Assembly: GCA_009779845.1 (NCBI GenBank)
Contig: WRBE01000010.1
Location: forward strand, 1 to 56,543
Length of the DNA stretch: 56,543 nt
Reading direction: 5' to 3'
From: Oscillospiraceae bacterium
GTDB lineage: Bacteria; Bacillota; Clostridia; Oscillospirales; Oscillospiraceae
This document shows positions 25,860-51,860 of the stretch, piece after piece. Under the pieces are notes generated by a model. That model made no database searches. It saw nothing but the letters and a program-made list of their open reading frames with translations, and had not been told where the DNA came from. Each line of letters begins with the position of its first letter. Position 1 is the first letter of the stretch. The translations under genes and the position numbers were made by a program.

Positions 25860-26276
25860 ATGCAGGGCAAAGTTGAAATCTGCGGGGTCAATACGGCAAA
25901 GCTGAAAGTGCTCTCTAACGATGAGATTACAGACCTGCTCCGCCGCACCAAAGAGGGCGACTGGGAGGCACGGCAGGCGCTCATTTCCGGCAATCTTCGC
26001 TTGGTTCTCTCGGTGATTCAAAAATTCCTCAACCGAGGCGAGAATGTAGACGACCTGTTCCAAGTGGGTTGTATCGGGCTGATTAAGGCCATTGATAATT
26101 TTGATATTAGTCAAAACGTACGTTTTTCCACGTATGGGGTTCCGATGATTATCACTAGGGGAAAACCGGAGAAAGAAACCCCTTATGATGCGTACAAAAC
26201 AAGGAAAACCAAGGCTTTGCAACTCTCAGTTCTACTATCACAAGACCAAAGAAGCGTGGCGGGAAAACTTTATTGA
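25860..26276 (+). CDS. sigG: sigG 5' part (RNA polymerase sigma-G, interrupted)
   Basis: The forespore-specific sigma-70 family factor, cut by an inserted element. Codons 1-98 (to 26,153) are true SigG: KVEICGVNTAKL near the start, then NLRLVLSVIQKFLNRG, DDLFQVGCIGLIKAIDNFD and RFSTYGVPMII, covering regions 2.1 to mid 2.4. The following 40 codons come from the element, giving a 138-residue hybrid that keeps core-binding region 2 but lacks regions 3 and 4. The start at 25860 has AAAGGGGGG eight bases upstream and matches the known N-terminus. The 3' part is at 51,384-51,860; joined length is 256 residues, as in known sigma-G proteins. Confidence 0.97.
   Translation: MQGKVEICGVNTAKLKVLSNDEITDLLRRTKEGDWEARQALISGNLRLVLSVIQKFLNRGENVDDLFQVGCIGLIKAIDNFDISQNVRFSTYGVPMIITRGKPEKETPYDAYKTRKTKALQLSVLLSQDQRSVAGKLY
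26140..26166 (+). other. attL: left junction of the sigG element
   Basis: The 14-bp core TTCCGATGATTATC (26140-26153) is repeated exactly at 51370-51383. The element-side arm TTATCACTAGGGGAAAAC (26149-26166) is the inverted partner, 16 of 18, of the arm GTTTTCGCCTAGCGATAA at the right end. The centre of the inferred attP falls between 26142 and 26143, giving CC as the probable crossover dinucleotide. Confidence 0.9.
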
Positions 26277-26586
26277 GCAATACCACGCCATCCGTGCCAC
26301 CTCCGCCGCCATGTACAACCGAGAACGACAACCGGGCACCCCCGCTTGGGTATCTGTGGCGGGGATGTTTGCAATCACGAAGTGGTACGACTGGCTCACC
26401 TTCTGCGACATTGTGCCATACATAGCAAAACGAAACCCGGCGCGCGGGCGGGTCAAGACGGTAGATATTACACTGACACGAGAGGTGAACATTCCGGGTG
26501 ATCCGAAGTTTTCTCGGTTTCTGGAAGAGAACGCGTGGCTGGGGAGCCAGGAAAAAACCGTGCGGCGGGTGCCGTGGGATTTTTAG
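26185..26586 (+). CDS. Element left-end hypothetical protein
   Basis: A 133-residue basic protein, rich in Arg, Lys and Trp, that I do not recognise. It begins in a different frame inside the sigG hybrid ORF (overlap 92 bp) and is the first gene inside attL. The SD is weak (GGAG 13 bases before the ATG; a second ATG follows at once). Its place under the sigG sigma-F promoter means that, when the element is integrated, it should be transcribed in the forespore. A recombination directionality factor or other excision trigger is possible but is pure inference from position. Confidence 0.55.
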   Translation: MMRTKQGKPRLCNSQFYYHKTKEAWRENFIEQYHAIRATSAAMYNRERQPGTPAWVSVAGMFAITKWYDWLTFCDIVPYIAKRNPARGRVKTVDITLTREVNIPGDPKFSRFLEENAWLGSQEKTVRRVPWDF

Positions 26587-26622
26587 GGTTGTTCTGTGGG
26601 CATGTAGTAATAGAGTAGCGCA

Positions 26623-26651
26623 TTGAAAAGAGCGGTTTGTTCTGTTATAAT
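26623..26651 (+). promoter_or_regulatory. Sigma-A promoter before the McrB-like remnant
   Basis: TTGAAA (26623-26628), 17-base spacer, TATAAT (26646-26651). Confidence 0.75.
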
Positions 26652-26728
26652 TGTCGCAAAGGTCGAAATGTACGCTTTTATGGGGGTTATGGTAAGGCTT
26701 ATAAAAATTGATTGGGAGGGTTTTTAGA

Positions 26729-27328
26729 ATGAGCGAAAATCACGCAGGGACTTATGTGGGGAAAATTATTAAGGATCCACGCTATCAAGCTGGTTCTTTA
26801 AGCGGAGCATACTACTTCAAAATAGAAGATGGTACAATAATTGACGATGAAAGTATGATTTGTCTGAAGCGTGCGAAGGATTCCAAACAAAAAAAAATTT
26901 TAGATGGCCTTATAGGAAAATCCGTCAGTTTAATGATTATGGAAAATGCACTTAAAAAACCAGATGTATATATGCCCTCAAAAATTCAATGCACTTACTG
27001 GCTTGACCATCCAGAGTGGTTCGGAAAAAACCTTCTCAAAAACTTAGAGCAAGAACCTGACGCTGTGCCAGATACTAGTGCATCCAACCCAAAAGAAAAA
27101 AACCACCAAAACCAAAACATCATCCTCTACGGCGCACCCGGCACAGGAAAAACTTACAACTCCGTACACCGTGCATTGTCCATTATTGATGAGGAGTCGC
27201 TTGAAGAGCTAAATAGTGACCAAGATGTGTTTGAGCTTTACCGCACGCTTAATGTGAAGGTTAAATTTCTTAACTTGGAAAATCCCGACTTTGATTTTGT
27301 GAACCAATTATTCAAAACAGAGGGCTAG
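26729..27328 (+). pseudogene. Truncated McrB-like AAA+ protein
   Basis: A 199-residue remnant. The N-terminal ~110 residues are an unassigned, possibly DNA-binding domain. Then comes NIILYGAPGTGKTYN (about 130-145), the Walker A region characteristic of McrB-type restriction GTPases, but the protein stops about 50 residues later, before Walker B, the signature NTAD loop and the arginine finger. No McrC nuclease gene follows. Start at 26729 from GGGAGGG eight bases upstream. It is probably the leftover of a restriction system cut down by deletion, although its promoter and SD look intact. Confidence 0.65.
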
Positions 27329-27350
27329 GGTTTTGCCCCGCTCTCCGCTC

Positions 27351-27379: not shown

Positions 27380-27428
27380 TCATCAAATCAAGATTTGTAA
27401 AATCACGCTTTGAAAGTTGGTGTGTTCT

Positions 27429-28844
27429 ATGTTCATAGGCCGTAAGCAAGAACTTGCATTTTTAGAAGACAAGTATACTGCCCCCGGCGGTCAGCTTGTC
27501 GTACTCTATGGGCGGCGGCGTGTCGGGAAGACGGCAATGTTACAGCATTTTTGTGCCAATAAGCCCCATGTGTTCTACTCTTGCCGTGAAATATCGGATA
27601 AAAAACAGCTTGCAGATTATTCCGAGCGCATTCTACAGGCAGGAATCCCGGCGGCACAGTATTTAGACGTTTTCCCCGATTGGGAGAAGGCACTTTCAGC
27701 CGTTTTAGAGTTGCCCGCCACCGGTGCAAAAAAACTGCTGGTTATTGATGAGTTCCCCTATATGTGCAAAGGCAATGCCTCCATCCCCTCCATTTTACAG
27801 ATTCTTTGGGATGAGAAACTCAAAGACCAAAACGTGATGATCATCCTCTGCGGCAGTGCCATGAGCTTTATTGAAAAGAAACTCCTGTCTGAAAAGAACC
27901 CGCTCTATGGCCGGGCGACCGGTGTCTACAAGATGAAAGAGTTGCCCTTTGACGACGCAATCAAGTTCTTTCCCAACTATTCGGATGAGGACAAGATGCT
28001 GGCATACGCCGTGCTGGGCGGCATCCCCCACTATTTGCGGCAGTTTGAGCCTAGCTTATCTCTGAGTGAAAATATCATCAAACATGTGCTGACAAAAGGG
28101 TGTGCGCTGTATAGCGAAGTCGAATTTCTCATTCGGCAAGAGTTGCGGGAACCGGCACTCTACAACACCATCGTCGAAGCCGTGGCACTTGGCAATACAA
28201 AGCTCAATGACATCTACACAAAAACCGGGTTGGAGAAGGCAAAGATCAGCGTTTATCTGCGTAACTTGATGGAGCTTGAGATACTAGAGCGGGAGTTCTC
28301 CGTGACCTCTAGCACGAAAGAGCAGGCCACCTCCACACGGGGCCTGTATCGGATTACAGATAACTTCTTCCGCTTTTGGTTCCATTTTGTCTTTCCGCAT
28401 CTATCTGACTTGGAGACCGGAGATGCCGCCGGGGTGTTTGAGCATGTTGTGCACCCCCAACTGAACCACTTCACATCTCCTGTTTTTGAGATTGTCTGCC
28501 GAGAATATCTCCGTAAGTTGAACCGGAAAAATGCACTCGGCTTTCGTGCCGCAAAACTGGGCAGATGGTGGGGCAAGCTGGGCGGCACACAGACAGAGGT
28601 CGATGTGGTAGCCATAGATGCCGTATCCAAGCACTATGTCTTAGGCGAATGCAAATTCCGAAATGCACCGATGGACACAGGCGATCTGGACGCACTAAAG
28701 GCAAAGGCCGGATTTGTCAAGCAAGGCGCAGCGGTGCAATATGCCCTGTTCTCAAAATCCGGGTTTTCAGAGGGTCTGGCTACTGTAGCCGAGCAGGGTG
28801 AAGGGCTACGTCTCTTCTCGCTTTCAGATATTGTGGTGCCATGA
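27429..28844 (+). CDS. Archaeal-type ATPase with DUF234 C-terminal domain
   Basis: A 471-residue protein. The STAND/AAA-like ATPase (PF01637 type) has Walker A YGRRRVGKTA (27-36), Walker B LLVIDEFPY (about 100-110) and ILCGSAMSF. A winged-helix segment follows (about 240-290), then DUF234 with EVDVVAID and LGECKF (about 395-420), which resembles a PD-(D/E)xK nuclease core. Such proteins are scattered in archaea and anaerobes and are often in defence or mobile contexts; their role is not settled. The ATG at 27429 is preferred over upstream TTG and GTG in the same frame, although its SD is poor. Confidence 0.8.
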   Translation: MFIGRKQELAFLEDKYTAPGGQLVVLYGRRRVGKTAMLQHFCANKPHVFYSCREISDKKQLADYSERILQAGIPAAQYLDVFPDWEKALSAVLELPATGAKKLLVIDEFPYMCKGNASIPSILQILWDEKLKDQNVMIILCGSAMSFIEKKLLSEKNPLYGRATGVYKMKELPFDDAIKFFPNYSDEDKMLAYAVLGGIPHYLRQFEPSLSLSENIIKHVLTKGCALYSEVEFLIRQELREPALYNTIVEAVALGNTKLNDIYTKTGLEKAKISVYLRNLMELEILEREFSVTSSTKEQATSTRGLYRITDNFFRFWFHFVFPHLSDLETGDAAGVFEHVVHPQLNHFTSPVFEIVCREYLRKLNRKNALGFRAAKLGRWWGKLGGTQTEVDVVAIDAVSKHYVLGECKFRNAPMDTGDLDALKAKAGFVKQGAAVQYALFSKSGFSEGLATVAEQGEGLRLFSLSDIVVP

Positions 28845-28907: not shown

Positions 28908-29183
28908 TTACATTATCTCCACACCCACAAGCTCCGCCTCGGCGTGTTCTTCCATGAAGCGGACGATCTCGTCCAATGACTGCCGTGCATAAGCAAACTC
29001 GCCCGACACAACGACAACCCCAATGGTCAGGGTCTGGTACATACCCTGTGTGTCCACCACAGACACGGCGGCGTTGAAGCGTCGCCGTGTTTTGTCGATC
29101 AGGCTACGGCAGACTTGGCGTTTGTCTTTGAGGGATGTGGCGTGGGGGATGTGAAAGGTTAGCTTTGCGGTTTGTGTGTGCAT
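28908..29183 (-). CDS. DUF503 (YlxP-like) protein
   Basis: A 91-residue protein with the DUF503 pattern: LTFHIPHATSLKDKRQVCRSLIDKTRRRFNAAV in pieces LKDKR and RRRFNAAV, then VDTQ, LTIGVVVVSG and a C-terminal helix. YlxP proteins usually sit beside nusA-infB-rbfA and are linked to ribosome maturation. The start at 29183 has GAGGAGA seven bases upstream. It is the only leftward gene in this part of the element, and is divergent from cas3; in this place it may be a captured chromosomal copy or a small partner of the element. Confidence 0.8.
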   Translation of the reverse strand: MHTQTAKLTFHIPHATSLKDKRQVCRSLIDKTRRRFNAAVSVVDTQGMYQTLTIGVVVVSGEFAYARQSLDEIVRFMEEHAEAELVGVEIM

Positions 29184-29271
29184 GACATTATCTCCTCTAA
29201 CTAAAATATACCAGATTTCTACGCATCCCGCAAGGTTGTTATGCTTTGTAAAATTCAATTCAACAAAATGG

Positions 29272-29329: not shown

Positions 29330-31477
29330 TTGTCAGACTATATTGCACGTCGAGCAGAGGACAAGCGAGAGCAGGCGTTGTCCGAACACTTACACGGCAC
29401 GGCCGAACGAGCTGCCGAGTTTGCCTCTGCCTTTGGGGCAAGAGAGTGGGGGTATTTGTGCGGACTGCTCCATGATATTGGAAAGTATAGCGAGGCGTTT
29501 CAAAATAGAGTCCGAGGATCAAATCAGCGTGTAGACCACGCCACAGCAGGCAGTCAAGAGCTTATCCGCAAGGGTGCGCCTTTGGCTGCCTTTTGTGTTG
29601 CGGGACATCACGGAGGCCTGCCGGATGGCGGAGACCCGAAAGATAACGAAGACCAAGCGACTCTTGTTGGACGCTCTAAGCGCAAACTGGAAGACTACTC
29701 TGCTTGGGAAACGGAAATCGCCCCGCCGCCGTTCTCGCAGCAGGAATGTCATGACCCGTTGCAAGATTCGTTTTTCACCCGAATGCTCTATTCCTGTCTT
29801 GTGGATGCAGACTACTTGGACACAGAAGCATTTATGTCCGGCGAGGCAGTTGACCGTACCGGCGGGGAGAGTATGTCTGTGTTGCTAGACAAATTAAACA
29901 ATCACTTCGAGGAAAGAGGATTCCTCAACCCCCAAAGCGACTTAAACCGCAAACGAACACAGGTGTTGCACAATTGTATGGATGCGGCGGCCTCTACACC
30001 TGGCCTTTTCTCGCTGACAGTTCCCACGGGCGGCGGAAAAACGCTCGCTTCTTTGGCCTTTGCACTTAACCATGCCGTACATCATGGGAAAGAACGGGTG
30101 ATCTATGTGATTCCGTATTGCTCTATTATCGACCAAACTGTAGAGGTATTCCGTAACATTTTGGGTGCGGATAATGTGTTAGAGCACCACAGTGGCGCTA
30201 CATACGAGACCGGTGAGAAAGATTATGTCGGCGCAAAAGACAAGATGGTACTGGCCACTGAAAACTGGGACATGCCCATTGTGGTGACAACATCTGTACA
30301 ATTTTTTGAGTCGCTTTACGCAAACCGTTCGTCTCGTTGTCGAAAGTTGCACAACATTGCAAACAGCGTGGTCATTTTTGATGAGGCACAAATGATTCCG
30401 CTCCCCAACTTAAAGCCTTGTGTATTGGCCATTGCCCAATTGGTCGAACACTTCAAGACTACAGCGGTCTTATGTACGGCCACGCAACCCTCACTGGATG
30501 GGTTATTTGAAGAATTGGCACCGCAACTCAAACAGCAAGAGATTTGTGCAGAACCGAAGGAACTTTATATGGCATTACGGCGGGTAAGTTTTCAGCGGGT
30601 AGGAAAACTTACCAACATAGAGTTGGCAGAGCGTCTTTCCGAGCATGAACAGGCTCTGTGTATTGTCAACAGTCGAAAGCAGGCACAAGAAGTATTTCAT
30701 CTACTATCGGGCGAGGGGAACTATCACCTGTCTACACTAATGTACCCGAAGCACCGCAGCGGACTTTTAGAAGAAATCAGAGCAAGGCTCAAAGCGGGTG
30801 AGCCTTGCCGTGTGATCTCCACCTCTCTCATTGAGGCCGGTGTTGATGTGGACTTCCCCGCAGTATACCGGGCAGAGGCGGGCTTGGATTCGATTCTGCA
30901 AGCGGCAGGACGTTGCAACCGAGAGGGCAAACGTCCGGCAAAGGAAAGTATCGTCACTGTATTTGATTCGGAGGCCAAAGCACATCCTATGTTGGACACA
31001 AATATTGATGCCATGAACGAAGCCGCACGAAGCCACCAAGACCTTGGTGCATTTGAGGCCATCAGCACTTATTTTAAAGTGCTACTCCAATTCAGGGGCG
31101 ACGATGCACTGGATTTATATGGGGTGCTAAACGCCTTTCAGAATGGGTTTGATGGGCGGCAACTTCCGTTCCGTACGGTTGCAGAAAACTTTCAAATGAT
31201 TGCAACAACAGCAAAGACTGTCTACATCCCGGAAGGTGATGGAGAGCGATTAGTAGAAAAACTTCGAGCAGGAGAAGTAAGCCGTGGTTTGTTCCGCGCG
31301 TTAGGCCGATATGGCGTGACGGTGTATCCGGAACATTTTGAGGCATTGCGGAGAGCGGGGGATATTGAAGTGCTTCCAGAGTCAGAGGATATGGCGATTT
31401 TATTGAACATGGATTTATATGATAAGCGGACAGGGTTATCGTTTGAGGCGGAGGAGGGGAAGGGATTTATGGTGTAA
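29330..31477 (+). CDS. cas3: Cas3 nuclease-helicase, type I-C
   Basis: A 715-residue effector that degrades target DNA after Cascade recognition. The N-terminal HD nuclease shows LLHDIGKY (H48-D49), VDHATAG (H70) and GHHGGLPDG (H93-H94). The SF2 helicase has VPTGGGKTLAS (about 230-240), VIFDEAQMIP (about 350, DEAQ box), CTATQPS, and STSLIEAGVDVDF with RCNREG (about 500-530). The start is TTG at 29330, with AGGGGGCG upstream; no ATG in frame gives a full HD domain. First gene of the operon cas3-cas5-cas8c-cas7-cas4-cas1-cas2, all in one direction. Confidence 0.96.
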   Translation: MSDYIARRAEDKREQALSEHLHGTAERAAEFASAFGAREWGYLCGLLHDIGKYSEAFQNRVRGSNQRVDHATAGSQELIRKGAPLAAFCVAGHHGGLPDGGDPKDNEDQATLVGRSKRKLEDYSAWETEIAPPPFSQQECHDPLQDSFFTRMLYSCLVDADYLDTEAFMSGEAVDRTGGESMSVLLDKLNNHFEERGFLNPQSDLNRKRTQVLHNCMDAAASTPGLFSLTVPTGGGKTLASLAFALNHAVHHGKERVIYVIPYCSIIDQTVEVFRNILGADNVLEHHSGATYETGEKDYVGAKDKMVLATENWDMPIVVTTSVQFFESLYANRSSRCRKLHNIANSVVIFDEAQMIPLPNLKPCVLAIAQLVEHFKTTAVLCTATQPSLDGLFEELAPQLKQQEICAEPKELYMALRRVSFQRVGKLTNIELAERLSEHEQALCIVNSRKQAQEVFHLLSGEGNYHLSTLMYPKHRSGLLEEIRARLKAGEPCRVISTSLIEAGVDVDFPAVYRAEAGLDSILQAAGRCNREGKRPAKESIVTVFDSEAKAHPMLDTNIDAMNEAARSHQDLGAFEAISTYFKVLLQFRGDDALDLYGVLNAFQNGFDGRQLPFRTVAENFQMIATTAKTVYIPEGDGERLVEKLRAGEVSRGLFRALGRYGVTVYPEHFEALRRAGDIEVLPESEDMAILLNMDLYDKRTGLSFEAEEGKGFMV

Positions 31478-31521
31478 ATGATAAATAAGAGGCACATTCC
31501 CAACCACCAAACAGAAAGGAG

Positions 31522-32181
31522 TTGAACAACATAGCAATTCAATTAGAAGTATGGGGCGCAGATGCCTGTTTTAGTCGTCCGGAGTTTAAGGTTGAGCGGG
31601 TTTCTTACGATTTTATCACGCCATCGGCGGCCCGGGGGATTTTAGAGAGCGTGTTCTGGCATCCCGGGCTTAAGTGGCACATTGATCGGATTCATGTGCT
31701 GAGGCCGATTCAGTTTGCCAATATTCGCCGGAATGAAGTCAGTGCCAAAATATCCGCCCGCAACGTGCAAACGGCAATGAAATCAGGGACACCGGCGTAT
31801 TTGGCCACCACAGAACACATCCAACAGCGGGCCACTACGGCCCTCAAACATGTGCGGTACATCATCGATGCACATTTCTCCATGACGGACAAGGCGGCCC
31901 CCGGTGATAATCCGGGGAAGTTTCAAGACATCATCAAACGGCGGATTCAGCGGGGGCAGTTTTATAGTATGCCCTATTTCGGAACAAGAGAATTCCCGGC
32001 CTTTTTTGCGGCACCAAAGGAAATTCCATCCTGCCCAAAGGAGCTAAAAGGGAAGCACGACTTTGGGTACATGCTCTATGACATGGACTACAGCAACCCG
32101 GAGGATATTCGACCGCAGTTTTTCCGTGCCATTATGCAAGACGGGGTTGTGGACTTGACCGATGTGGAGGTGAGAGGATGA
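31522..32181 (+). CDS. cas5: Cas5c (Cas5d), crRNA-processing Cascade subunit
   Basis: A 219-residue RAMP protein. In type I-C, which lacks Cas6, Cas5 cuts the pre-crRNA and stays on the 5' handle. The family N-terminus is IAIQLEVWGADACFSRPEFKVERVSYD in pieces LEVWG and CFSRPEF, then TPSAARGILESVFW, and RRNEVSAKISARN. AAAGGAG ends directly at the TTG of 31522, too close for normal initiation; the next in-frame near-cognate codon is ATA at 31531, nine bases after the SD, and would give an N-terminus like family members. Either start is unusual. It overlaps cas8c by four bases. Confidence 0.94.
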   Translation: MNNIAIQLEVWGADACFSRPEFKVERVSYDFITPSAARGILESVFWHPGLKWHIDRIHVLRPIQFANIRRNEVSAKISARNVQTAMKSGTPAYLATTEHIQQRATTALKHVRYIIDAHFSMTDKAAPGDNPGKFQDIIKRRIQRGQFYSMPYFGTREFPAFFAAPKEIPSCPKELKGKHDFGYMLYDMDYSNPEDIRPQFFRAIMQDGVVDLTDVEVRG

Positions 32182-33905
32182 TTTTACACGCATTGGTGGA
32201 GCGGTATGAGGATTTGGCCAAACAGGGGAAAATTGCAAAACCCGGCTGGGGCCCGGCGAAGGTGTCGTATGCGTTGTCGCTGTCGCAAGATGGGGAGCTA
32301 TTGGATGTTGTAGGGCTACCGCCAATAGAGACCCAGCAGGGAAAAAGGACAGTATCTCGCCCACAAGAGATGCAGGTGCCGGAGCCTGTCAAGCGTTCTT
32401 CCGGGGTTGCGGCAAACTTTCTCTGTGACACATCCTCATACTTTTTGGGGATGGATAACAAAGGAAAACCGGCACGCACGAAGGAGTGCTTTCAAGCGGC
32501 GAAAAATTTGCATGAAAAGGTGTTAGAGCAAGTTGACAGCCCTGTTGCAACAGCAATCTTGCGGTTCTTTCATTATTGGGCCACAGAGGGATGCGAAACA
32601 CACCCCGCCCTTGTTGAAAAAGCAGAAGATGTGAAAGCCGGCAGTAATCTGATTTTTCGAGTGGATGGCGTATTCGCACAAGATGACCCGGAAATCGCCC
32701 GTGCATGGCAAGCTGTGTATGAGGAAAAAGAAGGCGACACGGCAACTTGTCTTGTTACAGGGGAAGAGGCGCATATTGCACGGCTTCACCCATCTATCAA
32801 AGGTGTGCGGGGAGCACAATCTTCCGGGGCGACGCTGGTTGGGTTTAACTCGGACTCGTTGTGCTCTTACGAGAAGAAACAGGGCGAGAACGCCCCGGTG
32901 GGGGAATATGCCGCATTTGCCTATGGAGCGGCCCTCAATGCCCTATTGGCAGACCGAGAACATACGCAGCTTTTGGGTGACATGACCTTGGTGTTTTGGG
33001 CGAAAGGCGGAGAGTCGGCCTATCAATCTTTCTTTGGCGCCATGCTTGGAAAAAATGAAGATGAGATGACCGACTCCAGCTTAAAAGCGGCAATGACGAG
33101 TTTGGCCAAAGGGGAAACCACAAAATGGGCAGGCGTAGAGATTAACCCTGCAACTCCCTTTTACATTCTGGGGCTTTCGCCCAATGCGGCTCGGCTATCT
33201 GTGCGGTTTTTTCTGCAAAACAGCTTTGGTGCAATTGCCCAGCGAATGAAAGCCCACCAAGAACGACTGGAAATTGCCCGCCCTGCTTACGACAGACATG
33301 AAGAGCTTCCATTTTGGGCATTGATTCGTGAAACGGTGAATCAAAAGTCACGGGACAAAAAAGCGTCTCCGGTTATGGAGGGGGAGTTGGTCAGAGCAGT
33401 TCTGACTGATGGGAAATATTCCGCAACCCTACTCAACGGTGTTATGCTCCGCATTCGGGCAGAAAAGGAAGTCACCAGAGGGCGTGCGGCAATTATCAAA
33501 GCGTATTATTTGAAAAATAAACACAAAGATTGTCCAAGGGAGGTATTGACAGTGGCATTAAATGAAAGCAAGCATACACCATATCTATTGGGACGGGCAT
33601 TTTCAGTTTTAGAGGCAATTCAGCAGTCAGCAAATCCCGGCATCAACACAACAATCAAGGATAAGTATTTCAACTCAGCCTCAGCAACTCCAGCTACAAT
33701 ATTCCCAATCTTGATCAGCTTGACACAACACCATTTACGCAAACTGGAGAAAGGGCTGCATATCCACTATGAAAAAGAGTTGACGGCCATTTTAGGGGAA
33801 ATTGCTGATTTTCCAAAACGCTTGACCCTGCCAGAACAGGGAGCATTCCAACTCGGCTACTACCATCAAACACAAAAACGTTACGAAAAGAAAAAGGAGG
33901 ACTAG
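32178..33905 (+). CDS. cas8c: Cas8c (Csd1), large Cascade subunit
   Basis: A 575-residue large subunit responsible for PAM recognition (TTC-type in known I-C systems) and Cas3 recruitment. The Csd1 family start [27 protein letters not shown] (about 76-88) and the C-terminal [19 protein letters not shown] pattern (about 495-513) are present. It begins at the ATGA overlap with cas5 and ends four bases before cas7. Length is normal, with no break. Confidence 0.95.
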
Positions 33906-33909
33906 AGCT

Positions 33910-36499: not shown

Positions 36500-36508
36500 G
36501 GACTGTAT

Positions 36509-43890: not shown

Positions 43891-43901
43891 ACAAAGGAGA
43901 G

Positions 43902-44255: not shown

Positions 44256-45298
44256 TGGCGAAGTTGAAGATTATCACGATGGAAGATGTGCAAGCCGAGC
44301 CCGCTGAGTTCCTTTGGGAGCCGTATATCCCGCTTGGTAAGATCAGCATCGTCCAAGGCGACCCCGGTGACGGAAAAACCACTTTGCTCCTAGCCATCGC
44401 CGCCGCTGTGACGAGAGGTTTGCCTCTGCCCGGCGGCATACAGACTGCCCCTGTCCGTGTTATCTTCCGAACAGCGGAGGATGGGCTGGCGGACACCATC
44501 AAGCTTCGCTTGGAGCAATTGGGTGCGGACTGTGGGCGCATTCATGTGGTAGATGAAAAAGAGAAGTCGCTTTCTCTATCGGATGAACGGATTGAGGAAG
44601 CCATTATCAAAATGGATGCGAAGTTATTTATCCTCGACCCATTGCAAGCATATCTCAGCGGTGCGGGTATGCACAGTGCAAACGGCATCCGTCCACTGAT
44701 GAAAGCCCTCGGTACAGTTGCAGACCGGACAGGCTGTGCCATCGTCATCATTGGTCACCTCAACAAGAAAGGCGGCAAGGCACAGTATCGTGGTTTAGGC
44801 AGCATCGACATCTACGCCGCCGCTCGGAGTGTGCTGACGGTGGGTAGGCTGACGGACAGTGTTCGGGCCGTGGTACAGGGAAAATCCAACCTCGCCCCGC
44901 CCGGCACACCGCAGGCATTCAGTTTCGACCCTGCAACCGGCTTTGTGTGGCACGGAGATTGTGATACGACTTTAGACGAACTGTTGGCAGAGCGGAAGCT
45001 CTCGCCCAAGCCAGAAAACCAGTTGGACAAGGCCAAGCGGTTTCTTGAGACTACGCTTTCCAAGGGTGCCGCTCCTGCTACGGAGCTTGTGGAACTGGCA
45101 AAGGAGCAAGGCATATCTACCAAGACCCTCAACCGTGCAAAGGAAGCACTGGGTGTCATCTCCGTCAAGCAGGGCGGGAAATGGCTTTGGCAGATTCCAA
45201 TTACGGTGGACTATAAAGTGGGCCAAGGTGGTCAAGATGGCCAACCTACCCCTATGGCCGCCTTGACCATCTTGCCCTCTGTGGGAGCCTCTGCGTAA
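44255..45298 (+). CDS. RepA-like AAA_25 ATPase/helicase
   Basis: A 347-residue RecA-fold ATPase of the hexameric RepA type. Walker A is QGDPGDGKTT (34-43), Walker B LFILDPLQAYL (about 125-135), then IIGHLNKKGG and GSIDIYAAARSV. The C-terminal winged helix is about 260-320. Elements of this class often carry it between mobC and the relaxase, suggesting a replicative step of the excised circle. GTG start with GGAGG seven bases upstream; its stop overlaps the relaxase ATG by one base. Confidence 0.85.
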   Translation: MAKLKIITMEDVQAEPAEFLWEPYIPLGKISIVQGDPGDGKTTLLLAIAAAVTRGLPLPGGIQTAPVRVIFRTAEDGLADTIKLRLEQLGADCGRIHVVDEKEKSLSLSDERIEEAIIKMDAKLFILDPLQAYLSGAGMHSANGIRPLMKALGTVADRTGCAIVIIGHLNKKGGKAQYRGLGSIDIYAAARSVLTVGRLTDSVRAVVQGKSNLAPPGTPQAFSFDPATGFVWHGDCDTTLDELLAERKLSPKPENQLDKAKRFLETTLSKGAAPATELVELAKEQGISTKTLNRAKEALGVISVKQGGKWLWQIPITVDYKVGQGGQDGQPTPMAALTILPSVGASA

Positions 45299-46419
45299 TG
45301 GCAACAACATGGATGAAAGCCCTGCATCGAGGTAGTGGTATCTCCGCCGCTCTCGGTCGCTCGGTGGACTATATCAGAAATTCCGAAAAGACCGAGGACG
45401 GTGAGTTGGTATATGGGTACGAGTGTGACCCCTATACGGTGCAGTCAGAATTTCTGCTTTCCAAAAAGTTGTATGAGCAGAGAACGGGACGAGACCAAGG
45501 TCAGCGTGATGTAATCGCCTACCACATCCGTATGAGTTTCAAGCCCGGCGAAGTCACAGCAGAGCAGGCGTTGGAACTTGGTCGGGAGCTCGCCATGCGA
45601 TGGACAAAGGGCAAGCATCAATTCATCGTGGCAACGCATACCAACACGAAGAGTCCTCATGTCCACATCATCTACAATTCTGTCAACCTAGACTGCACCG
45701 GAAAATATCAAGACTTCAAACGGTCAGCCATTGTCCTCCGCCGTGTGAGTGATCAGATTTGTTTGGAGCATGGGCTGTCGGTCATTAAAAAGCCGGGGCT
45801 GTCCAAGGGTTATAATCGCAAAGGATATCTTGCGAACAAGCCCAATATGCTCATTGACATCCAAGCCAAACTGCAACAGGGTTACGGGGCCGGGTTTGAG
45901 CATTGGGCAAGGATTCAGAATCTGAAAACCTCTGCCAAGACGCTCATCTTTTTGCAGGAGCGTGGGCTGGCCGATTACGACAAGCTGGTGGACGCAACAC
46001 GCTCTGCAACGCAGAGGTTCAACACCATGTCCGGCCGTGTCAGCGAGATCAAAGCCAGACAGAAGGACATCGCCGAATTGCAAAAGCACATCGGCGCTTA
46101 TCGCAAGACGAGAGAGGTCTATGTCCAGTATCGTCAGGCAAAGAACAAGCGGAAATTCTATGCTGAGAACGAATCCGCCCTCGTCAGACACAAGGCCGCA
46201 AAGGAGTATTTCAACGGCCTAAATCTCAAGAAACTACCCGCTATGAAATCACTTCAACAGAAGTACGCCATTCTTGAAGCTGAGAAGAGAAAACTCTACT
46301 CCGGCTACAAACCGGCACGAGAAGAAATGATCGCACTCCTAACGGCGCAGCAGATCGTAGATACGCTACTAGGGAAAGTGCCGCAGCGGACAATGACACT
46401 CAACCGTGGCGCACGGTAA
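45298..46419 (+). CDS. MobP/MobA-type relaxase (PF03432 family)
   Basis: A 373-residue relaxase that nicks oriT and stays on the 5' end. The histidine metal site is H114, H121 and H123 in VATHTNTKSPHVHIIYNSVN; Y25 in SVDYIRNSEKT is the probable catalytic tyrosine. A helical, basic C-terminal part (about 220-350) follows. The protein is shorter than some relatives (450-500), so it may lack a distal domain, but the catalytic part is complete. Confidence 0.9.
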   Translation: MATTWMKALHRGSGISAALGRSVDYIRNSEKTEDGELVYGYECDPYTVQSEFLLSKKLYEQRTGRDQGQRDVIAYHIRMSFKPGEVTAEQALELGRELAMRWTKGKHQFIVATHTNTKSPHVHIIYNSVNLDCTGKYQDFKRSAIVLRRVSDQICLEHGLSVIKKPGLSKGYNRKGYLANKPNMLIDIQAKLQQGYGAGFEHWARIQNLKTSAKTLIFLQERGLADYDKLVDATRSATQRFNTMSGRVSEIKARQKDIAELQKHIGAYRKTREVYVQYRQAKNKRKFYAENESALVRHKAAKEYFNGLNLKKLPAMKSLQQKYAILEAEKRKLYSGYKPAREEMIALLTAQQIVDTLLGKVPQRTMTLNRGAR

Positions 46420-46474: not shown

Positions 46475-46634
46475 GACTTGGGCGGTGCAGAGCATTTCTC
46501 GAAAATGCACGCACCACCCCCTGCTTGCAAGGTCGTAAAACCAAAAAGAAAGGAACGTGATAGGTTGCAATCTCTTGACTGATCCCGCCCATCTATGGGC
46601 AGAATCTAACGAAACAACAGAGGGGGCTTGTCTA

Positions 46635-46793
46635 TTGCACATTACGCTTACCACAAGCATAAATGGAATCCCGGTCAATCAAATCTCGAAGAAAGAACGT
46701 AGCTATACCTCAACCGTCATCAGCCAAGTGATCAGCGATGTAAACAGGCGATTGGAAAATTTTTCAACCAATGATAACAGTGCAAAATCGTAG
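46635..46793 (+). CDS. Small hypothetical protein
   Basis: A possible 52-residue protein starting at TTG (46635) with AGGGGG eight bases upstream; the frame is also open from 46,557 without a clear SD. Sequence contains ITLTTSINGIPVNQISKKE and a polar C-terminus. It ends just before the recombinase promoter. No family recognised; small genes here are common in related mobile elements. Confidence 0.35.
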   Translation: MHITLTTSINGIPVNQISKKERSYTSTVISQVISDVNRRLENFSTNDNSAKS

Positions 46794-46794: not shown

Positions 46795-46823
46795 TTGAAA
46801 TTTCATCCCACAGATGTTATACT
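46795..46823 (+). promoter_or_regulatory. Strong vegetative promoter of the recombinase gene
   Basis: TTGAAA (46795-46800), 17-base spacer, TATACT (46818-46823) with extended TGT. GGTTGAAA over the -35 pairs with TTTCAACC at 46,762-46,769, a possible operator. The transcript begins near a perfect 8-bp hairpin CTTCCCGC/GCGGGAAG (46,831-46,851). Confidence 0.75.
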
Positions 46824-46876
46824 AATCTCACTTCCCGCCTCTTGCGGGAAGGATACATAGAGCAAGGAGCATGACC

Positions 46877-48271
46877 ATGCAAAACAAAACACACGCCGCC
46901 ATTTATATTCGTGTTTCTACTGACCACCAGCGGGAAGAAGGATACTCCATTGATGCACAAAAAGAGATGCTGGAAGCCCATTGTGTATCAAAAGGAATTA
47001 AACACTATGAATACTATATCGACGGCGGATTTACAGGCTCGAACATTGAGCGACCTGAAATGCAGCGTCTTATCCGTGACGTGAAGTGCGGCAAAGTATC
47101 TCACGTTGTTGTTTATAAATTAGACCGCTTATCTCGAAGCCAGAAAGACACCCTGTATCTCATTGAAGATGTATTCAACCCCAACGGTGTGGATTTTATC
47201 TCTATGCAGGAGAGCATGGACACCTCTACCCCGCTGGGTCGCCTTATGCTCGGCATCCTGTCTGCGTTCGCCCAGCTTGAGCGTGAAAATATCATGGAGC
47301 GCACCCGCATGGGGATGCGGAAGCGGGTAGAGTCCGGCCTGTGGCCCGGCGGCGGCAACACACCGTATGGCTATGATTACGACAAAGAGCAAGGCATCTT
47401 AGTCCCCAACGCCGATGCAGAGAAAGTGCGGAAAATCTACGAACTCTATCTGGCGGGCCACTCCACCGGTAAGATTGCGGATATGTTGGGTTTTAAGTAT
47501 GACCGTCTGGTGTATCAGATTCTCAGCCGAAAATCCAACGCCGGATATATCCAATACAATGGTGAGGAATACCGCGGCCGCCATGAACCGATTGTCAGCT
47601 TGGAAACATACGAAGAAGCCATGCAGTATAGGAAAGAGCGTTCCGTCAAGAAGGTGTCCGAGTCAAAACATCTGTTCACGGGACTGCTCTATTGCGGCAA
47701 GTGCGGTGCGAAAATGCGCTACCAGAAGTGGGGCAAAACAGATTCCAAAATCATCTGTTACTCACAGGACAACAAGCCACATCTCGTGAAAGACCCAAAC
47801 TGCGACAACCAGCGGCTATGGGCAAGCGTTATGGAAGATGTAGTTGTGCGTGACTTGCTGGGGTTCTCTTTCGCCCTGTCCCAAAAGGAAAGCAAAGAGA
47901 TTTCCAATATGAGCCTGCTGGATATGCTACATGACCAATACAACCACGCCACGGTAAAGCTCCGGCGGCTATATGACCTCTATAGCAGCGGCGGGGATGA
48001 AGTGCTGTTGCAGTCCATTGATGATGCAAAGAAAGAGATGGCAAAAATCCAAACCCAAATTGAGAGCGAGACAGAAAAAAGCAAAAGCCAAGACCGGATG
48101 CGAAGGATGCACAAAGAAGTTTCCAGCCTTACCGATGCGTGGGCATATATGACCACCAAGGAAAAAAAGTGCGTGGCAAACGCCTGTATCAATAAAATCA
48201 CACTTCTCGACGGTGCGATTCACTTGGATTATAATCTGGATGCTGAAACCGACAGCAGTACAGTAGCATAG
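46877..48271 (+). CDS. Large serine recombinase
   Basis: A 464-residue site-specific integrase/excisionase of the SpoIVCA/TnpX group. The resolvase domain starts AAIYIRVSTDHQ (nucleophile S14), with YKLDRLSRSQKDT and ILSAFAQLERENIMERTRMG (about 75-150). The recombinase domain has PYGYDYDKEQGILVPN. A zinc ribbon, LLYCGKCGAKMRY with two later cysteines, is at about 270-320, then a coiled coil (about 355-415). Start at 46877 has AAGGAG seven bases upstream; the ATG at 46871 abuts the SD. It is the only recombinase in the element, so the natural agent for the sigG att sites, though it sits 3.1 kb from the right end. Confidence 0.93.
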   Translation: MQNKTHAAIYIRVSTDHQREEGYSIDAQKEMLEAHCVSKGIKHYEYYIDGGFTGSNIERPEMQRLIRDVKCGKVSHVVVYKLDRLSRSQKDTLYLIEDVFNPNGVDFISMQESMDTSTPLGRLMLGILSAFAQLERENIMERTRMGMRKRVESGLWPGGGNTPYGYDYDKEQGILVPNADAEKVRKIYELYLAGHSTGKIADMLGFKYDRLVYQILSRKSNAGYIQYNGEEYRGRHEPIVSLETYEEAMQYRKERSVKKVSESKHLFTGLLYCGKCGAKMRYQKWGKTDSKIICYSQDNKPHLVKDPNCDNQRLWASVMEDVVVRDLLGFSFALSQKESKEISNMSLLDMLHDQYNHATVKLRRLYDLYSSGGDEVLLQSIDDAKKEMAKIQTQIESETEKSKSQDRMRRMHKEVSSLTDAWAYMTTKEKKCVANACINKITLLDGAIHLDYNLDAETDSSTVA

Positions 48272-48396: not shown

Positions 48397-48936
48397 TTAG
48401 TCGCTAACGATGCCCTCAGCTTCTAGCCGCAGTTTGTAGAAAACCTGCAGCCATTCCGGCTGTTTCTCAACTTCGGACATAAGTTTCTCTAAACGTCTTT
48501 TCCCGACTCGTTTATCCAGTACAGCAAAAAGACGAACCATAGCATCAGGAGACGCAATGCTTTTATCAATGCTATTGTTGTGATAGGCATAAAAGGCATT
48601 ATAAAAGTAGTGGGTTCCAACTTGACTTGTCGCAACAAGATTTGCCTGCTCATGACGCTCTTGATACATATGAGACCTTATTTTTTCTTCCCTTTCCCAG
48701 ACAAATTCGTGCCACGCATTATAGTACTTTTCGCTGAAGTTAAAGTAGTCACACTGAAATATTTCTTTCCCATCAAGACGAATTGCTGCCCGCCCGGTTT
48801 GATCATGTGCACCTCGATAGTTCGTTTTGAAATATTGTATTCGCCCTTTGAGAGAATCGCAAATGTTCTCTTGCTCCAGTACTTTTCGCATCGCACTCCA
48901 CGAAATGCCGGGGCGCGGATGATTTTTTCTTCCCAT
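48397..48936 (-). CDS. SF0329-like protein of unknown function
   Basis: A 179-residue protein. ICDSLKGRIQYFKTNYRGAHD, GRAAIRLDGKEIF and a C-terminal LDKRVGKRRLEKL resemble the conserved SF0329 family of Shigella and many Firmicutes, which has no known role; the match is from memory. AGGAGAAG precedes the ATG. It is convergent with the recombinase gene across the strong terminator. Confidence 0.6.
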   Translation of the reverse strand: MGRKNHPRPGISWSAMRKVLEQENICDSLKGRIQYFKTNYRGAHDQTGRAAIRLDGKEIFQCDYFNFSEKYYNAWHEFVWEREEKIRSHMYQERHEQANLVATSQVGTHYFYNAFYAYHNNSIDKSIASPDAMVRLFAVLDKRVGKRRLEKLMSEVEKQPEWLQVFYKLRLEAEGIVSD

Positions 48937-49025: not shown

Positions 49026-51176
49026 CTACACCTGCTTCATACTCAACCCAATCCGCTTCTTCTCCGGCTCTACTTGCAGCACCACCGCCTGCACCACATC
49101 CCCCACCGCGACCACCTCAGAGGGGTGGCGTACAAAGCGGTCTGCGAGTTCTGAGATGTGAACCAAGCCGTCTTGATGCACGCCGATGTCTACAAACGCA
49201 CCGAAGTCAATCACATTCCGCACCGTGCCGGAGAGGGTCATGCCGGGGGTGAGGTCTTCCATGTGTAACACGTCCTGCCGCATGAGCGGGGGTGGCAGCT
49301 CATCTCTGGGGTCACGGCCCGGTTTTAAGAGGTTGGCCACAATGTCAGTCAGGGTCGGCACACCCACCCCACACGCTTGGGCGGCCTCGGCTGTGCCGAT
49401 TGCTTGCAGGCGGCACTGCAACTCACCTAAGTTGCCGGATTTCACGTCTTCCGGCGTGTAGCCCAGCAGGGCGAGCAATGCCTTTGCCGCTTTATATGAT
49501 TCCGGGTGGACAGAGGTGTTGTCCAAGATTTGCTTGGATTCCGACACCCGCAAAAATCCGGCACACTGTTCATACGCTTTCGGGCCCAGCTTTGGCACTT
49601 TGCGGAGGGTTTTTCTGTCCGGGAACGCACCATGTTCTTCCCGATAGGCGACAATGTTTTTTGCCGTGGTTGCGGTCAGTCCCGACACTTGCGTGAGCAG
49701 GGGGACGGACGCAATGTTCAAGTCAACGCCAACTTGGTTCACGCAGTCCTCCACCACGGCTTCTAATGCTTGATCCAACCGTGCCCCCGGCATGTCGTGT
49801 TGGTACTGCCCGACACCGATACTCTTGGGGTCAATTTTCACCAATTCTGCCAAGGGGTCTAACAATCTCCGTGCAATGGACACGGCAGAGCGGAGGGTTA
49901 GGTCTAGCTCGGGAAACTCGTCTGCCGCCAACTTGGAAGCGGAATAGACCGAAGCCCCGGCCTCGTTTACCACCATATAGCTGACCTTGCCGCCCATGTC
50001 ACGGATTACGTCCGCCACAAACGCCTCCGCCTCACCGGAGGCCGTACCGTTGCCGATTGCAATACAACTGACACCATGGCGTGTGATTAGTTTACGCAGG
50101 ATGTCCGCCGCTTTTTCTGTTTGGTTGAGCGGCGGGGTGGGGTAAATCACGTCCGTATCAAGCACACGCCCGGTTTCGTCTACCACCGCCAGCTTACAGC
50201 CGGTACGATACGCCGGGTCAAGCCCCAATGTCACCCGGCCTTTCACCGGCGGCTGCATGAGGAGCGGTTTGAGATTGAGTGCAAACATCGAAATAGCTTG
50301 CTCGTCTGCCCGGTCGGTAAGCTGACTACGCATCTCCCGCTCCACTGACGGAAAGAGTAAGCGTTTGAACGAATCTTCCGCCGCCTCTGCCACTAAGTCG
50401 GATGTAATGCTGCCCGGCCATACAAAGGCTTTGTGTAACATAGCGAGGGCTTCGGCCTCATCCACTTCGATAGAAACTTTGAGCAACTTCTCCCGCTCGC
50501 CCCGGTTTATCGCCAATATTTGGTGGCTGGAAAGCGATTTATACGCCGCATCAAAGGCATAGTACAACCGATAGACAGAGTCTTCTTCCGGGCTTACCGC
50601 ACGGACAGCAACCCGACCAGTTCCGGCAACCAGCTCCCGCAGGGCTTGCCGCACACCGGCATCATCGGACATGTCCTCTGCGATAATGTCTTTTGCACCG
50701 GAGATGGCATCTTCTGTAGTCAGCACCCCTTGTGCTTCGTTGATGTATGGACGTGCAAGGTCAGAGATGGAACCGCTCTCCAACTCTTGCTCGAAAATCA
50801 GATGTGCCAACGGTTCCAGCCCCCGCTCTCTGGCTATAGTGGCACGAGTGCGCCGCTTGGGGCGATAGGGGCGGTAGAGGTCTTCCACCGCTGTCAGTGT
50901 TTCGGCGTTTTTAATGTCGGCTTCCAGTTCCGGTGTCAGCTTGCCAAGCTCTGTGATGACGGCGAGGACTTCTTGTTTCCTTGCTTCCAAGTTACGCAAA
51001 TAGGCCAGCCGCTCTGCGATTTGACGCAGAACTTGGTCGTCTAGTGTTCCGTGCTGCTCTTTCCGATACCGAGCAATGAACGGAATGGTACAGCCCCCAT
51101 CTAAGAGTTCTATGATGTTTTGAGCGAACAAGAGCTTGATGTCAAACTCTTGGCTCAGTACTTCGGCAAAATTCAT
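49026..51176 (-). CDS. tex: Tex-family RNA-binding S1 protein
   Basis: A 716-residue Tex/YdcI protein, normally a chromosomal factor acting on RNA polymerase and transcript release. Domains in order: N-terminal HTH (FAEVLSQEFDIK), TVEDLYRPYRPKRRTRATIARERGLEPLA core in pieces DLYRPYRPKRRTRA, YqgF-like nuclease fold (GLDPAYRTGCKLAVVD), helix-hairpin-helix (TAKNIVAYREEHG) and S1 (LSGTVRNVIDFGAFVDIGVHQDGLVHISEL). Full length. Start at 51176 from GGAGGG and because the promoter lies inside the longer open frame. It lies inside the element, just within attR, which is unusual for this gene. Confidence 0.95.
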   Translation of the reverse strand: MNFAEVLSQEFDIKLLFAQNIIELLDGGCTIPFIARYRKEQHGTLDDQVLRQIAERLAYLRNLEARKQEVLAVITELGKLTPELEADIKNAETLTAVEDLYRPYRPKRRTRATIARERGLEPLAHLIFEQELESGSISDLARPYINEAQGVLTTEDAISGAKDIIAEDMSDDAGVRQALRELVAGTGRVAVRAVSPEEDSVYRLYYAFDAAYKSLSSHQILAINRGEREKLLKVSIEVDEAEALAMLHKAFVWPGSITSDLVAEAAEDSFKRLLFPSVEREMRSQLTDRADEQAISMFALNLKPLLMQPPVKGRVTLGLDPAYRTGCKLAVVDETGRVLDTDVIYPTPPLNQTEKAADILRKLITRHGVSCIAIGNGTASGEAEAFVADVIRDMGGKVSYMVVNEAGASVYSASKLAADEFPELDLTLRSAVSIARRLLDPLAELVKIDPKSIGVGQYQHDMPGARLDQALEAVVEDCVNQVGVDLNIASVPLLTQVSGLTATTAKNIVAYREEHGAFPDRKTLRKVPKLGPKAYEQCAGFLRVSESKQILDNTSVHPESYKAAKALLALLGYTPEDVKSGNLGELQCRLQAIGTAEAAQACGVGVPTLTDIVANLLKPGRDPRDELPPPLMRQDVLHMEDLTPGMTLSGTVRNVIDFGAFVDIGVHQDGLVHISELADRFVRHPSEVVAVGDVVQAVVLQVEPEKKRIGLSMKQV

Positions 51177-51207
51177 GATTGCTTGCCCTCCATATCTTTC
51201 AAACGCT

Positions 51208-51236
51208 ATCATACGCATTCCTTTCGAGATTGTCAA
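51208..51236 (-). promoter_or_regulatory. Promoter of tex
   Basis: Minus strand TTGACA (51231-51236), 17-base spacer, TATGAT (51208-51213). It lies inside the element, so tex expression moves with it. Bases 51,237-51,348 show nothing definite apart from a weak rightward TTGTAA-N17-TATTTT. Confidence 0.85.
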
Positions 51237-51348
51237 CGATTCCCTTTTGAAGCTGGCTAAAATTGATTTCCTCGTCTGCATAGAAATTCCCTCTTGCAAT
51301 TTCCCGCAATCCATTGTAAAATCAAGGAAAGCTCTATATTTTAACCAT

Positions 51349-51383
51349 GTTTTCGCCTAGCGATAACCATTCCGATGATTATC
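51349..51383 (+). other. attR: right junction of the sigG element
   Basis: The element arm GTTTTCGCCTAGCGATAA (51349-51366) followed by CCA and the core TTCCGATGATTATC (51370-51383). Joined to the left-end arm it forms attP: 18-bp arms matching at 16 of 18 positions around CCATTCCGATGA. Confidence 0.9.
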
Positions 51384-51860
51384 GGCGAAATTCGGCGGTA
51401 TCTCCGGGACAACAGCCCCATTCGGGTCAGCCGCAGTATGCGGGATTTGGCGTATAAAGTCCTGCAAGTCAAAGAACGGCTGATGGGCGAAAAACAAAAA
51501 GAACCCACCATCGACGAGATTGCCAAAGAATTAGACATTCGGCGAGAAGAGGTCGTCACCGCCTTAGACGCTATTATGGATCCTGTCAGCCTTCACGAAC
51601 CGGTCTACACCGACGGCGGGGATGACATCTGCGTCATGGATCAAGTGGGGGACACGAAAAATACCGATGAATCCTGGATTGAGCAGATTGCCTTAAACGA
51701 GGCCATCGCCCGCCTTACAGACCGGGAAAAACACATTTTGGCCCTGCGGTTTTATGACGGGAAAACCCAGATGGAGGTTGCCGGAGAGGTTGGGATCAGC
51801 CAAGCGCAAGTCTCTCGGCTGGAAAAGAATGCCATTGGGCAGATTAAGAAAAATTTGTAG
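51384..51860 (+). CDS. sigG: sigG 3' part (RNA polymerase sigma-G, interrupted)
   Basis: The remaining 158 codons of sigma-G, in frame with the 5' part across the core. GEIRRYLRDNSPIRVSRSMRD completes region 2.4 and opens region 3, with KEPTIDEIAKELDI next; region 4 has LTDREKHILALRFYDGKTQMEVAGEVGISQAQVSRLEK, here DREKHILALRF and SQAQVSRLEK, the -35 recognition helix. The sequence shows no decay. The first ATG (51375) in frame lacks an SD and the fragment lacks its native promoter, so it is silent until the element leaves. Confidence 0.97.
   Translation, partial: GEIRRYLRDNSPIRVSRSMRDLAYKVLQVKERLMGEKQKEPTIDEIAKELDIRREEVVTALDAIMDPVSLHEPVYTDGGDDICVMDQVGDTKNTDESWIEQIALNEAIARLTDREKHILALRFYDGKTQMEVAGEVGISQAQVSRLEKNAIGQIKKNL

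What the first reader, a model, noticed from the sequence alone, without database searches (positions are those of the whole stretch)
25860..51860. sigG is split by a 25.2-kb excisable-looking element: a skin-like intervening element in a forespore sigma gene
Seen: SigG codons 1-98 end in TTCCGATGATTATC at 26,140 and codons 99-256 resume in frame after the same 14 bases at 51,370. Joined, region 2.4 reads RFSTYGVPMII then GEIRRYLRDN, the normal sigma-G sequence, and neither half has decayed. Known: sigK in several spore formers is split by skin elements removed by a serine recombinase. I do not recall a described sigG element of this kind, so this may be new.
Basis: partly seen in the sequence, partly recalled or inferred. 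Interest (0 to 1): 0.95.

Follow-up and report, generated by a model that had tools for sequence, protein, structure and literature searches.

The report
Sporulation gene sigG kept in two pieces
In this bacterium the gene for the spore-specific sigma factor SigG is cut in two by a 25-kb insert that carries its own recombinase, and the same cut, with both halves still unspoiled, recurs in eight other genera, so the recombinase is likely a switch that rejoins the gene when the cell makes a spore.

Summary
Confirmed: sigG, the only copy found in this 2.42-Mb genome, is split at a Val-Pro-Met codon run by a 25,230-bp insert with a large serine recombinase (LSR), a mobilisation module and a type I-C CRISPR-Cas locus. 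It belongs to a family. A close LSR occurs in 29 of 394 genomes searched in the order; 28 of these lack an uninterrupted sigG, 26 show both halves, and in the 24 read the cut is at the same codon. In 36 split loci the halves join in frame. Inverted-repeat attachment arms flank a shared CC. Four of seven viral contigs examined carry the matching uncut site beside the same recombinase. In Agathobaculum and Flavonifractor both halves stay under purifying selection (median dN/dS 0.035-0.081), even where inverted or 757 kb apart. A candidate directionality protein lies just upstream of many of the recombinases. Most likely the recombinase alone keeps sigG split in growing cells and a sporulation-time factor would make it join the halves. 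Unlike the published elements I could read about, the target acts in the forespore, the cell that becomes the next generation. Joining was never observed; the window's own copy could be a recent, simply disruptive insertion.

The parts
25860..26153 (+). sigG 5' half, codons 1-98 (functional part inferred to end at CC, 26142-26143)
   Evidence: TIGR02850 positions 2-97, 162.7 bits, no stop
26140..26153 (+). left copy of the 14-bp direct repeat TTCCGATGATTATC
   Evidence: two exact copies in the window
26144..26167 (+). attL, element-side arm
   Evidence: complementary to the attR arm at 19 of 24 positions
27417..28844 (+). ATPase_2/DUF234 protein
28908..29258 (-). DUF503 protein
29330..36799 (+). 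type I-C cas operon: cas3, cas5c, cas8c, cas7, cas4, cas1, cas2
   Evidence: NCBIfam; cas5c, cas8c, cas7 and cas1 over type I-C model cut-offs, cas4 and cas2 over general ones
36968..42718 (+). CRISPR array, repeat GTCGCCCTCCGCACGGAGGGCGTGGATTGAAAT, period about 67
   Evidence: approximate limits
42845..43516 (-). helix-turn-helix regulator
43851..44255 (+). NikA/MobC-like mobilisation protein
44198..45298 (+). AAA_25 ATPase
45298..46419 (+). MobA/VirD2-type relaxase
   Evidence: NCBIfam relaxase models below cut-off
46597..46605 (+). GGGCAGAAT motif upstream of the small ORF (resembles a sigma-F -10 element, consensus recalled)
   Evidence: motif family in 16 of 35 loci, base-shuffled maximum 2
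46635..46793 (+). small ORF (52 aa, TTG start), candidate recombination directionality factor
   Evidence: related small ORFs precede the LSR in 40 of 71 loci; the window's copy is a divergent one; no Pfam or PHROGs match
46795..46823 (+). sigma-A-like promoter TTGAAA-N17-TATACT before the LSR
   Evidence: such a site in 12 of 25 loci, base-shuffled maximum 3; consensus match only
46871..48271 (+). large serine recombinase, 466 aa
   Evidence: Resolvase, Recombinase and Zn_ribbon_recom domains, PHROG integrase 95
48397..48936 (-). SF0329-family protein
49026..51314 (-). Tex protein (Tex_N, YqgF, HhH, S1 domains)
51348..51371 (+). attR, element-side arm
51370..51383 (+). right copy of the 14-bp direct repeat
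51384..51860 (+). sigG 3' half, codons 99-256
   Evidence: TIGR02850 positions 91-253, 269.9 bits, no internal stop

Best explanation
sigG is split at one attachment site by an element whose serine recombinase would keep the gene in two pieces during growth and likely rejoins it when the cell sporulates. Shown: the split, the recombinase, the paired att arms with a CC core, recurrence of the same split in nine genera (this one included), and purifying selection on both halves in two of them. Inferred: the recombinase, from a sigma-A-like promoter, acts alone in growing cells and drives attP x attB to attL x attR, so sigG stays split. Inferred: the small protein encoded just upstream is a recombination directionality factor made during sporulation, which turns the same enzyme to attL x attR, so the halves join at CC and SigG can be made in the forespore. 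In the window joining would excise a 25.2-kb circle; in relatives with inverted halves it would invert the DNA between them and lose nothing. Inferred: after germination the recombinase alone would split the gene again, which would explain how a rearrangement in the spore's own lineage does not erase the element.
For: No other SigG in the genome and half scores as high as whole congeners. LSR in 29 of 394 genomes of the order, 28 of them without an uninterrupted sigG. LSR absent from 9 of 9 uninterrupted Flavonifractor species and from both uninterrupted Agathobaculum species. 36 of 36 split loci join in frame, CC shared in 36 of 36, arms complementary at 15.25 of 24 against 6.74 shuffled. Uncut attP beside the same LSR in four of seven viral loci examined. 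dN/dS medians 0.035-0.081; LSR and sigG distances correlate. SpoVAD in 19 of 20 split genomes. Small ORF and promoter-like motifs. Precedent: in C. difficile skin the LSR is constitutive and enough for integration while a mother-cell factor adds excision (PMC5025042, passages).
Against: Joining was never seen: no attP junction in 25 Agathobaculum assemblies. A near-identical uninterrupted SigG (P0002) fits a recent insertion in this strain. The small ORF was not found by its motif in 31 of 71 loci, and the window's copy is divergent. The window's sigG half lacks the sigma-F-like promoter match seen in Agathobaculum. In G362 joining would put sigG on a 112-kb circle. G407 has the LSR with an uninterrupted sigG plus an extra 5' half. 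G186 lacks a SpoVAD match. In some Agathobaculum the 3' end of sigG is altered at about codon 243. A complete Tex gene lies in the insert.
Confidence: 0.6

Rival explanations
1. The window's insert is an ordinary mobilizable element that uses sigG as its integration site and simply disables sporulation in this strain; no regulated joining takes place here.
For: Mobilisation genes and CRISPR cargo; a near-identical strain is uninterrupted (P0002); three congeners are uninterrupted; no joined DNA seen anywhere (Agathobaculum only).
Against: Halves not decayed; SpoVAD kept; same site and recombinase family held for long in Agathobaculum and Flavonifractor under purifying selection.
Confidence: 0.24
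2. A stochastic on/off switch of sporulation (phase variation) by the recombinase, not tied to development.
For: Three Flavonifractor species have inverted halves, so recombination would flip about 3.7 kb reversibly.
Against: 28 of 29 LSR genomes are in the split state, whereas random switching should leave some assemblies joined; no attP junction in 25 Agathobaculum assemblies.
Confidence: 0.1
3. The halves are made as two separate polypeptides that work together as a two-part sigma factor, without DNA joining.
For: In many relatives the 3' half starts with an in-frame ATG close behind the recombinase gene.
Against: The cut lies inside region 2.4 (my reading). No Shine-Dalgarno-like sequence is evident before the 3' half in the printed junctions, and the reading-frame tail of the 5' half varies. 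The att arms are kept at both ends, which this reading does not need.
Confidence: 0.04
4. Assembly artefact of a fragmented genome.
For: The genome is in 91 contigs.
Against: Same codon, recombinase family and arms in many separate assemblies, among them a single-contig genome and named isolates.
Confidence: 0.02

Closest known systems
skin elements in sigK (B. subtilis, C. difficile; PMC5025042, passages read)
   Same: A sporulation sigma gene split by an element with a large serine recombinase. In C. difficile the recombinase is constitutive from a sigma-A-type promoter and a separate directionality factor gives excision.
   Different: sigK acts in the mother cell, a terminal cell; sigG acts in the forespore (recalled, textbook). 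Here relatives also have inverted or far-apart halves. Excision is shown for skin, not here.
gin in gerE of B. cereus ATCC10987 (PMC5595907, abstract and passages read)
   Same: Non-phage element of similar size (28.6 kb) with serine recombinases, splitting a sporulation gene at a short shared repeat (9 nt there, 14 here).
   Different: gerE works in the mother cell; gin has three recombinase genes and a shown factor, GirX. This insert has one LSR gene and carries CRISPR-Cas and a relaxase.
SP-beta in spsM of B. subtilis (PMC4191935, search listing; mentioned in passages)
   Same: Recombinase plus a small directionality factor rejoin a sporulation gene.
   Different: A prophage; its factor is mother-cell-specific.
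Prophage in comK of Listeria monocytogenes (mentioned in PMC5025042)
   Same: Regulated excision in a cell that is not terminal, the nearest precedent for the forespore problem.
   Different: A competence gene and a prophage, not sporulation.
Phages on viral contigs L238-L241
   Same: Same recombinase family (50-56% identity) and a CC-centred dyad site beside the gene.
   Different: Site uncut, no sigG half in the held DNA; contigs of 63-148 kb. L238 reads CCCATGA where the others read CCGATG.

Membership tests
Sporulation-gene intervening element (skin/gin class) | Sporulation gene split at a short direct repeat, frame restored on joining | tested here: met
Sporulation-gene intervening element (skin/gin class) | Element encodes a serine recombinase | tested here: met
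Sporulation-gene intervening element (skin/gin class) | attL/attR with repeat arms | tested here: met
   (window 19 of 24 complementary)
Sporulation-gene intervening element (skin/gin class) | Directionality factor for excision | tested here: inconclusive
   candidate small ORF in 40 of 71 loci, divergent in the window, function untested
Sporulation-gene intervening element (skin/gin class) | Excision during sporulation restores the gene | not testable with these tools
   needs cells or reads; no joined state in 25 assemblies
Sporulation-gene intervening element (skin/gin class) | Target gene expressed in a terminal cell (mother cell) | tested here: not met
   The target is sigG by TIGR02850, a forespore gene by recalled knowledge; the rule is stated in PMC5025042. 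This is a common property rather than a strict definition.
skin element in the strict sense | Inserted in sigK | tested here: not met
   inserted in sigG
Integrative mobilizable element | Integrase plus relaxase/mobilisation genes | tested here: met
Integrative mobilizable element | No own conjugation machinery | tested here: inconclusive
   No such domain among the insert proteins scanned, but not every small ORF was scanned
Prophage | Phage structural genes | tested here: not met
   10 insert proteins against PHROGs, no structural family; the cas, DUF503, Tex and remaining small ORFs were not given

The most novel reading that the evidence does not exclude
Whole genera (Agathobaculum, part of Flavonifractor) carry the forespore sigma gene permanently in two pieces, sometimes hundreds of kilobases apart or inverted, and a phage-related serine recombinase assembles the gene in every sporulation cycle and takes it apart again after germination: a reversible, germline-borne DNA rearrangement as an obligate step of development.
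Probability: 0.45. Interest if true: 0.97.

Novelty: new variant of a known kind. Interest (0 to 1): 0.92.

Why it matters
[quoted passage not shown] A split sigG breaks that rule and asks how a rearrangement in the spore lineage is undone. It also changes how sporulation capacity should be read from genomes: a sigG model finds only halves in these species, so they could be miscalled non-sporulating. It can be tested directly in named isolates, and it offers a new recombinase/attachment-site set.

Tried and rejected
Chance or artefact: rejected, since the same codon, arms and recombinase family recur in many separate assemblies. Second sigG in this genome: none. Rejoined (attP) state: one 16-letter pattern with up to one mismatch in 25 Agathobaculum genomes gave eight one-mismatch hits in six genomes and no exact hit; all eight have dyad scores of 7-11, so they look like chance matches. 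A first check of those hits used a wrong spacing and printed nothing; it was repeated. Uncut sites near LSRs, mostly ones lacking a nearby sigG half: 29 loci scanned, none convincing. Full-length Agathobaculum-type SigG in the protein database: the nearest is 93% identical on a 1,165-bp contig (P0121), no proof of a joined state because two Agathobaculum species are uninterrupted at this site. Flank synteny with congeners: uninformative; the own MFS and thioesterase neighbours were not found beside sigG in the held loci of three congeners. Two-polypeptide sigma factor: considered and disfavoured (see rivals). Rows dropped before the 36-locus count: G004 (halves overlap at contig ends), G106 (contig end), G177 (extra 3' half beside an uninterrupted sigG), G407 (uninterrupted plus extra 5' half), G292 and G239 (one half only), G160 and G301 (not fetched), and named or viral loci with only one half in the held flank. 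G205 is counted but cut by a contig end, and it was left out of dN/dS and the distance test.

Full report
OBSERVATION. The window is contig C10 of a 2.42-Mb, 91-contig genome (95.4% complete). sigG codons 1-98 and 99-256 lie at 25,860-26,153 and 51,384-51,860, with TTCCGATGATTATC at 26,140 and 51,370 and nowhere else in the window. The joined frame is a 256-aa SigG. The genome search shows no other SigG; the next hit, on C62 (189.6 bits), is presumably SigF (my reading). Half scores add up to 432.6 bits, against 435-440 in the three congeners searched, which are uninterrupted.

THE INSERT. It encodes an ATPase_2/DUF234 protein, DUF503, a type I-C CRISPR-Cas operon with a long array, an HTH regulator, NikA/MobC-like, AAA_25 and relaxase proteins, a 466-aa large serine recombinase (LSR), an SF0329 protein and a Tex protein. 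Ten insert proteins scanned against PHROGs gave no structural phage family. It therefore resembles an integrative mobilizable element. Whether Tex and DUF503 are cargo or host genes that came to lie between the halves was not settled. By sequence the LSR family is related to the solved TP901-1 and A118 phage integrases.

RECURRENCE. Among 59 relatives, four more genomes carried sigG split at this place (G006, G007, G024, G037); seven others showed no SigG-level match, and G004 is broken at contig ends. Junctions were read. A 3'-half query over 157 genomes of the order, 136 with a match, pointed to G119 and G172 (split), G106 (contig end) and an extra 3' half in G177; G160 and G186, weak there, proved split later. 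LSRs of the window, G024, G006 and G037 are 49-57% identical over their length. A search of 394 genomes of the order at E <= 1e-120 found the LSR in 29, from 10 of 169 genera. Of these 29, 28 have no uninterrupted sigG: 26 show both halves, G292 and G239 one; G407 has an uninterrupted sigG plus an extra 5' half beside its LSR. The junction was read in 24 of the 26 (not G160, G301) and is at the same codon. Both halves were found in nine genera, this one included, if G007 is counted, whose recombinase is only 35% identical. In named genome records (80 kept of 496; some are the same genomes) 43 of 80 LSR loci have a sigG half in the held flank: 43 of the first 53 and 0 of the 27 weaker or later ones.

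GENUS-WIDE STATUS. Agathobaculum: 24 of 25 species have a 3'-half match and 22 of 25 have the LSR, in each beside the 3' half; the attR arm was read in 21 of the 22, not in G438. The separate 5' half was located in the 10 species examined for it. The three species without the LSR are G435 and G291, uninterrupted at this site, and G437, with no match. Flavonifractor: 11 of 20 species are split and 9 uninterrupted; the LSR was seen in 11 of 11 split loci and in 0 of 9 uninterrupted species at E <= 1e-80.

ARRANGEMENTS. Uninterrupted Flavonifractor reads MocR(-) sigG(+). Seven split species read MocR(-), 5' half, [Fe-ADH, AOR, ThiF, LSR], 3' half with an insert of about 6.4 kb; G444 has a shorter one. 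Three (G327, G453, G445) read HD(-), 5' half(-), MocR(+), LSR(+), 3' half(+), so recombination between the att sites would invert about 3.7 kb and lose nothing. Fe-ADH and ThiF are; AOR, MocR and HD are labels recalled from sequence. In the single-contig genome G368 the halves are 757 kb apart and inverted; in G362 they are 112 kb apart and direct, so joining would leave sigG on a 112-kb circle. Small inserts of about 2.5 kb occur in L133 and L147; the latter lies in a run that I read as ftsZ-spoIIGA-sigE-sigG (gene names recalled).

ATTACHMENT SITES. For 36 split loci (31 genomes by handle, 5 named records) the halves, joined at codon 96/97, stay in frame with no internal stop. At the proline codon CC is identical on both halves in 36 of 36. 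In several 5' halves the next codon has drifted while the 3' half keeps CCGATG or CCAATG, as expected if crossing over is at CC. The element-side arms are complementary at 15.25 of 24 positions on average, against 6.74 (maximum 8.03 in 2000 trials) for shuffled bases and 12.1 across genomes; 0 of 20,000 re-pairings reached the observed mean, though relatedness makes that test lenient; five uninterrupted controls scored 6-11. Of 80 viral loci, seven were scanned for dyads; four (L238-L241, contigs of 63-148 kb) have the same LSR family and an uncut dyad site about 25-30 nt past the LSR gene, 23 of 24 in L241, in each case the best of 507-1132 CC sites, with no sigG half in the held DNA. L237 carries a sigG 5' half beside its LSR.

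SELECTION. Nei-Gojobori dN/dS medians: Agathobaculum 5' half 0.081 and 3' half 0.051 (9 species, 36 pairs; 5 pairs of the 3' half saturated), Flavonifractor 0.035 and 0.051 (11 species, 55 pairs). Mean pN/pS is 0.145 and 0.110 in Agathobaculum and 0.058 and 0.069 in Flavonifractor, against 0.067-0.18 in uninterrupted sets of three species. LSR and sigG distances correlate (r = 0.80, 0.68, and 0.81 for 29 together), as expected of shared descent. SpoVAD, a sigma-G-regulon gene by recalled knowledge, is found in 19 of 20 split genomes searched (not G186; in pieces in G223, frame-split in G368; G292 shows one half only), in 5 of 5 with an uninterrupted sigG, and not, or only at 26 bits, in two genomes without a SigG-level match.

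REGULATION CLUES. A small ORF with an RY[I/V/L]NG-like motif precedes the LSR in 40 of 71 loci; 35 were measured (41-65 aa), the window's being divergent. No Pfam match for the three tested. GGGCANA[AC]T lies 27-38 nt before it in 16 of 35 loci, the window included. A sigma-A-like promoter precedes the LSR in 12 of 25, the window included. A sigma-F-like promoter precedes the 5' half in 11 of 33, ten of them Agathobaculum, not the window. Related loci are not independent, and these are consensus matches, not proof. In C. difficile skin the LSR has a sigma-A promoter and is enough for integration, while a mother-cell-specific factor adds excision (PMC5025042, passages).

NOVELTY. No paper on a split sigG turned up in nine searches of the PMC open library; subscription papers are not held. 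The gin and C. difficile skin papers were read in passages, the others seen as listings.

LIMITS. Joining was never seen. The window's own insertion is polymorphic: P0002 is an uninterrupted SigG with 253 of 256 identical residues (source not shown). The developmental reading therefore rests on relatives, and for this strain simple disruption stays possible.

Noticed in passing
L105 6606, L107 2129, L223 5468, L325 6459; proteins P0126, P0127: In some Agathobaculum genomes (G350, G415, G291, G425, G436, G438) the SigG match stops at about codon 238-246 and the last residues differ; P0126 and P0127, clusters of 902 and 1088 members, show the like. A second break site in sigG, cause unknown.
   Followed up: partly
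window 29330-42718: A complete type I-C CRISPR-Cas operon with a long array of 67-nt units rides on the insert; spacer targets were not searched.
   Followed up: no
L116 887-2618 (G407): A genome of another family has an uninterrupted sigG plus an extra sigG 5' half, 82% identical to the window's, beside an LSR: transfer or contamination.
   Followed up: no
L133 6889-7446, L045 8910-9467, L240 7346-8086, L241 3481-4080: Proteins starting MTRK... that look alike by eye lie just after the sigG 5' half in two split loci and just after attP in two viral contigs, a hint that these inserts are phage-derived.
   Followed up: partly
window 49026-51314 and 28908-29258: A Tex gene and a DUF503 gene, usually chromosomal (recalled), lie between the sigG halves.
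   Followed up: no
L147 7012-7725: The small insert of L147 carries, besides the LSR, a protein with a microcompartment shell (BMC) domain.
   Followed up: no
proteins P0001, P0022: Two SigG-like proteins of 385 and 325 aa contain a long internal repeat; real duplications or assembly errors on short contigs.
   Followed up: no
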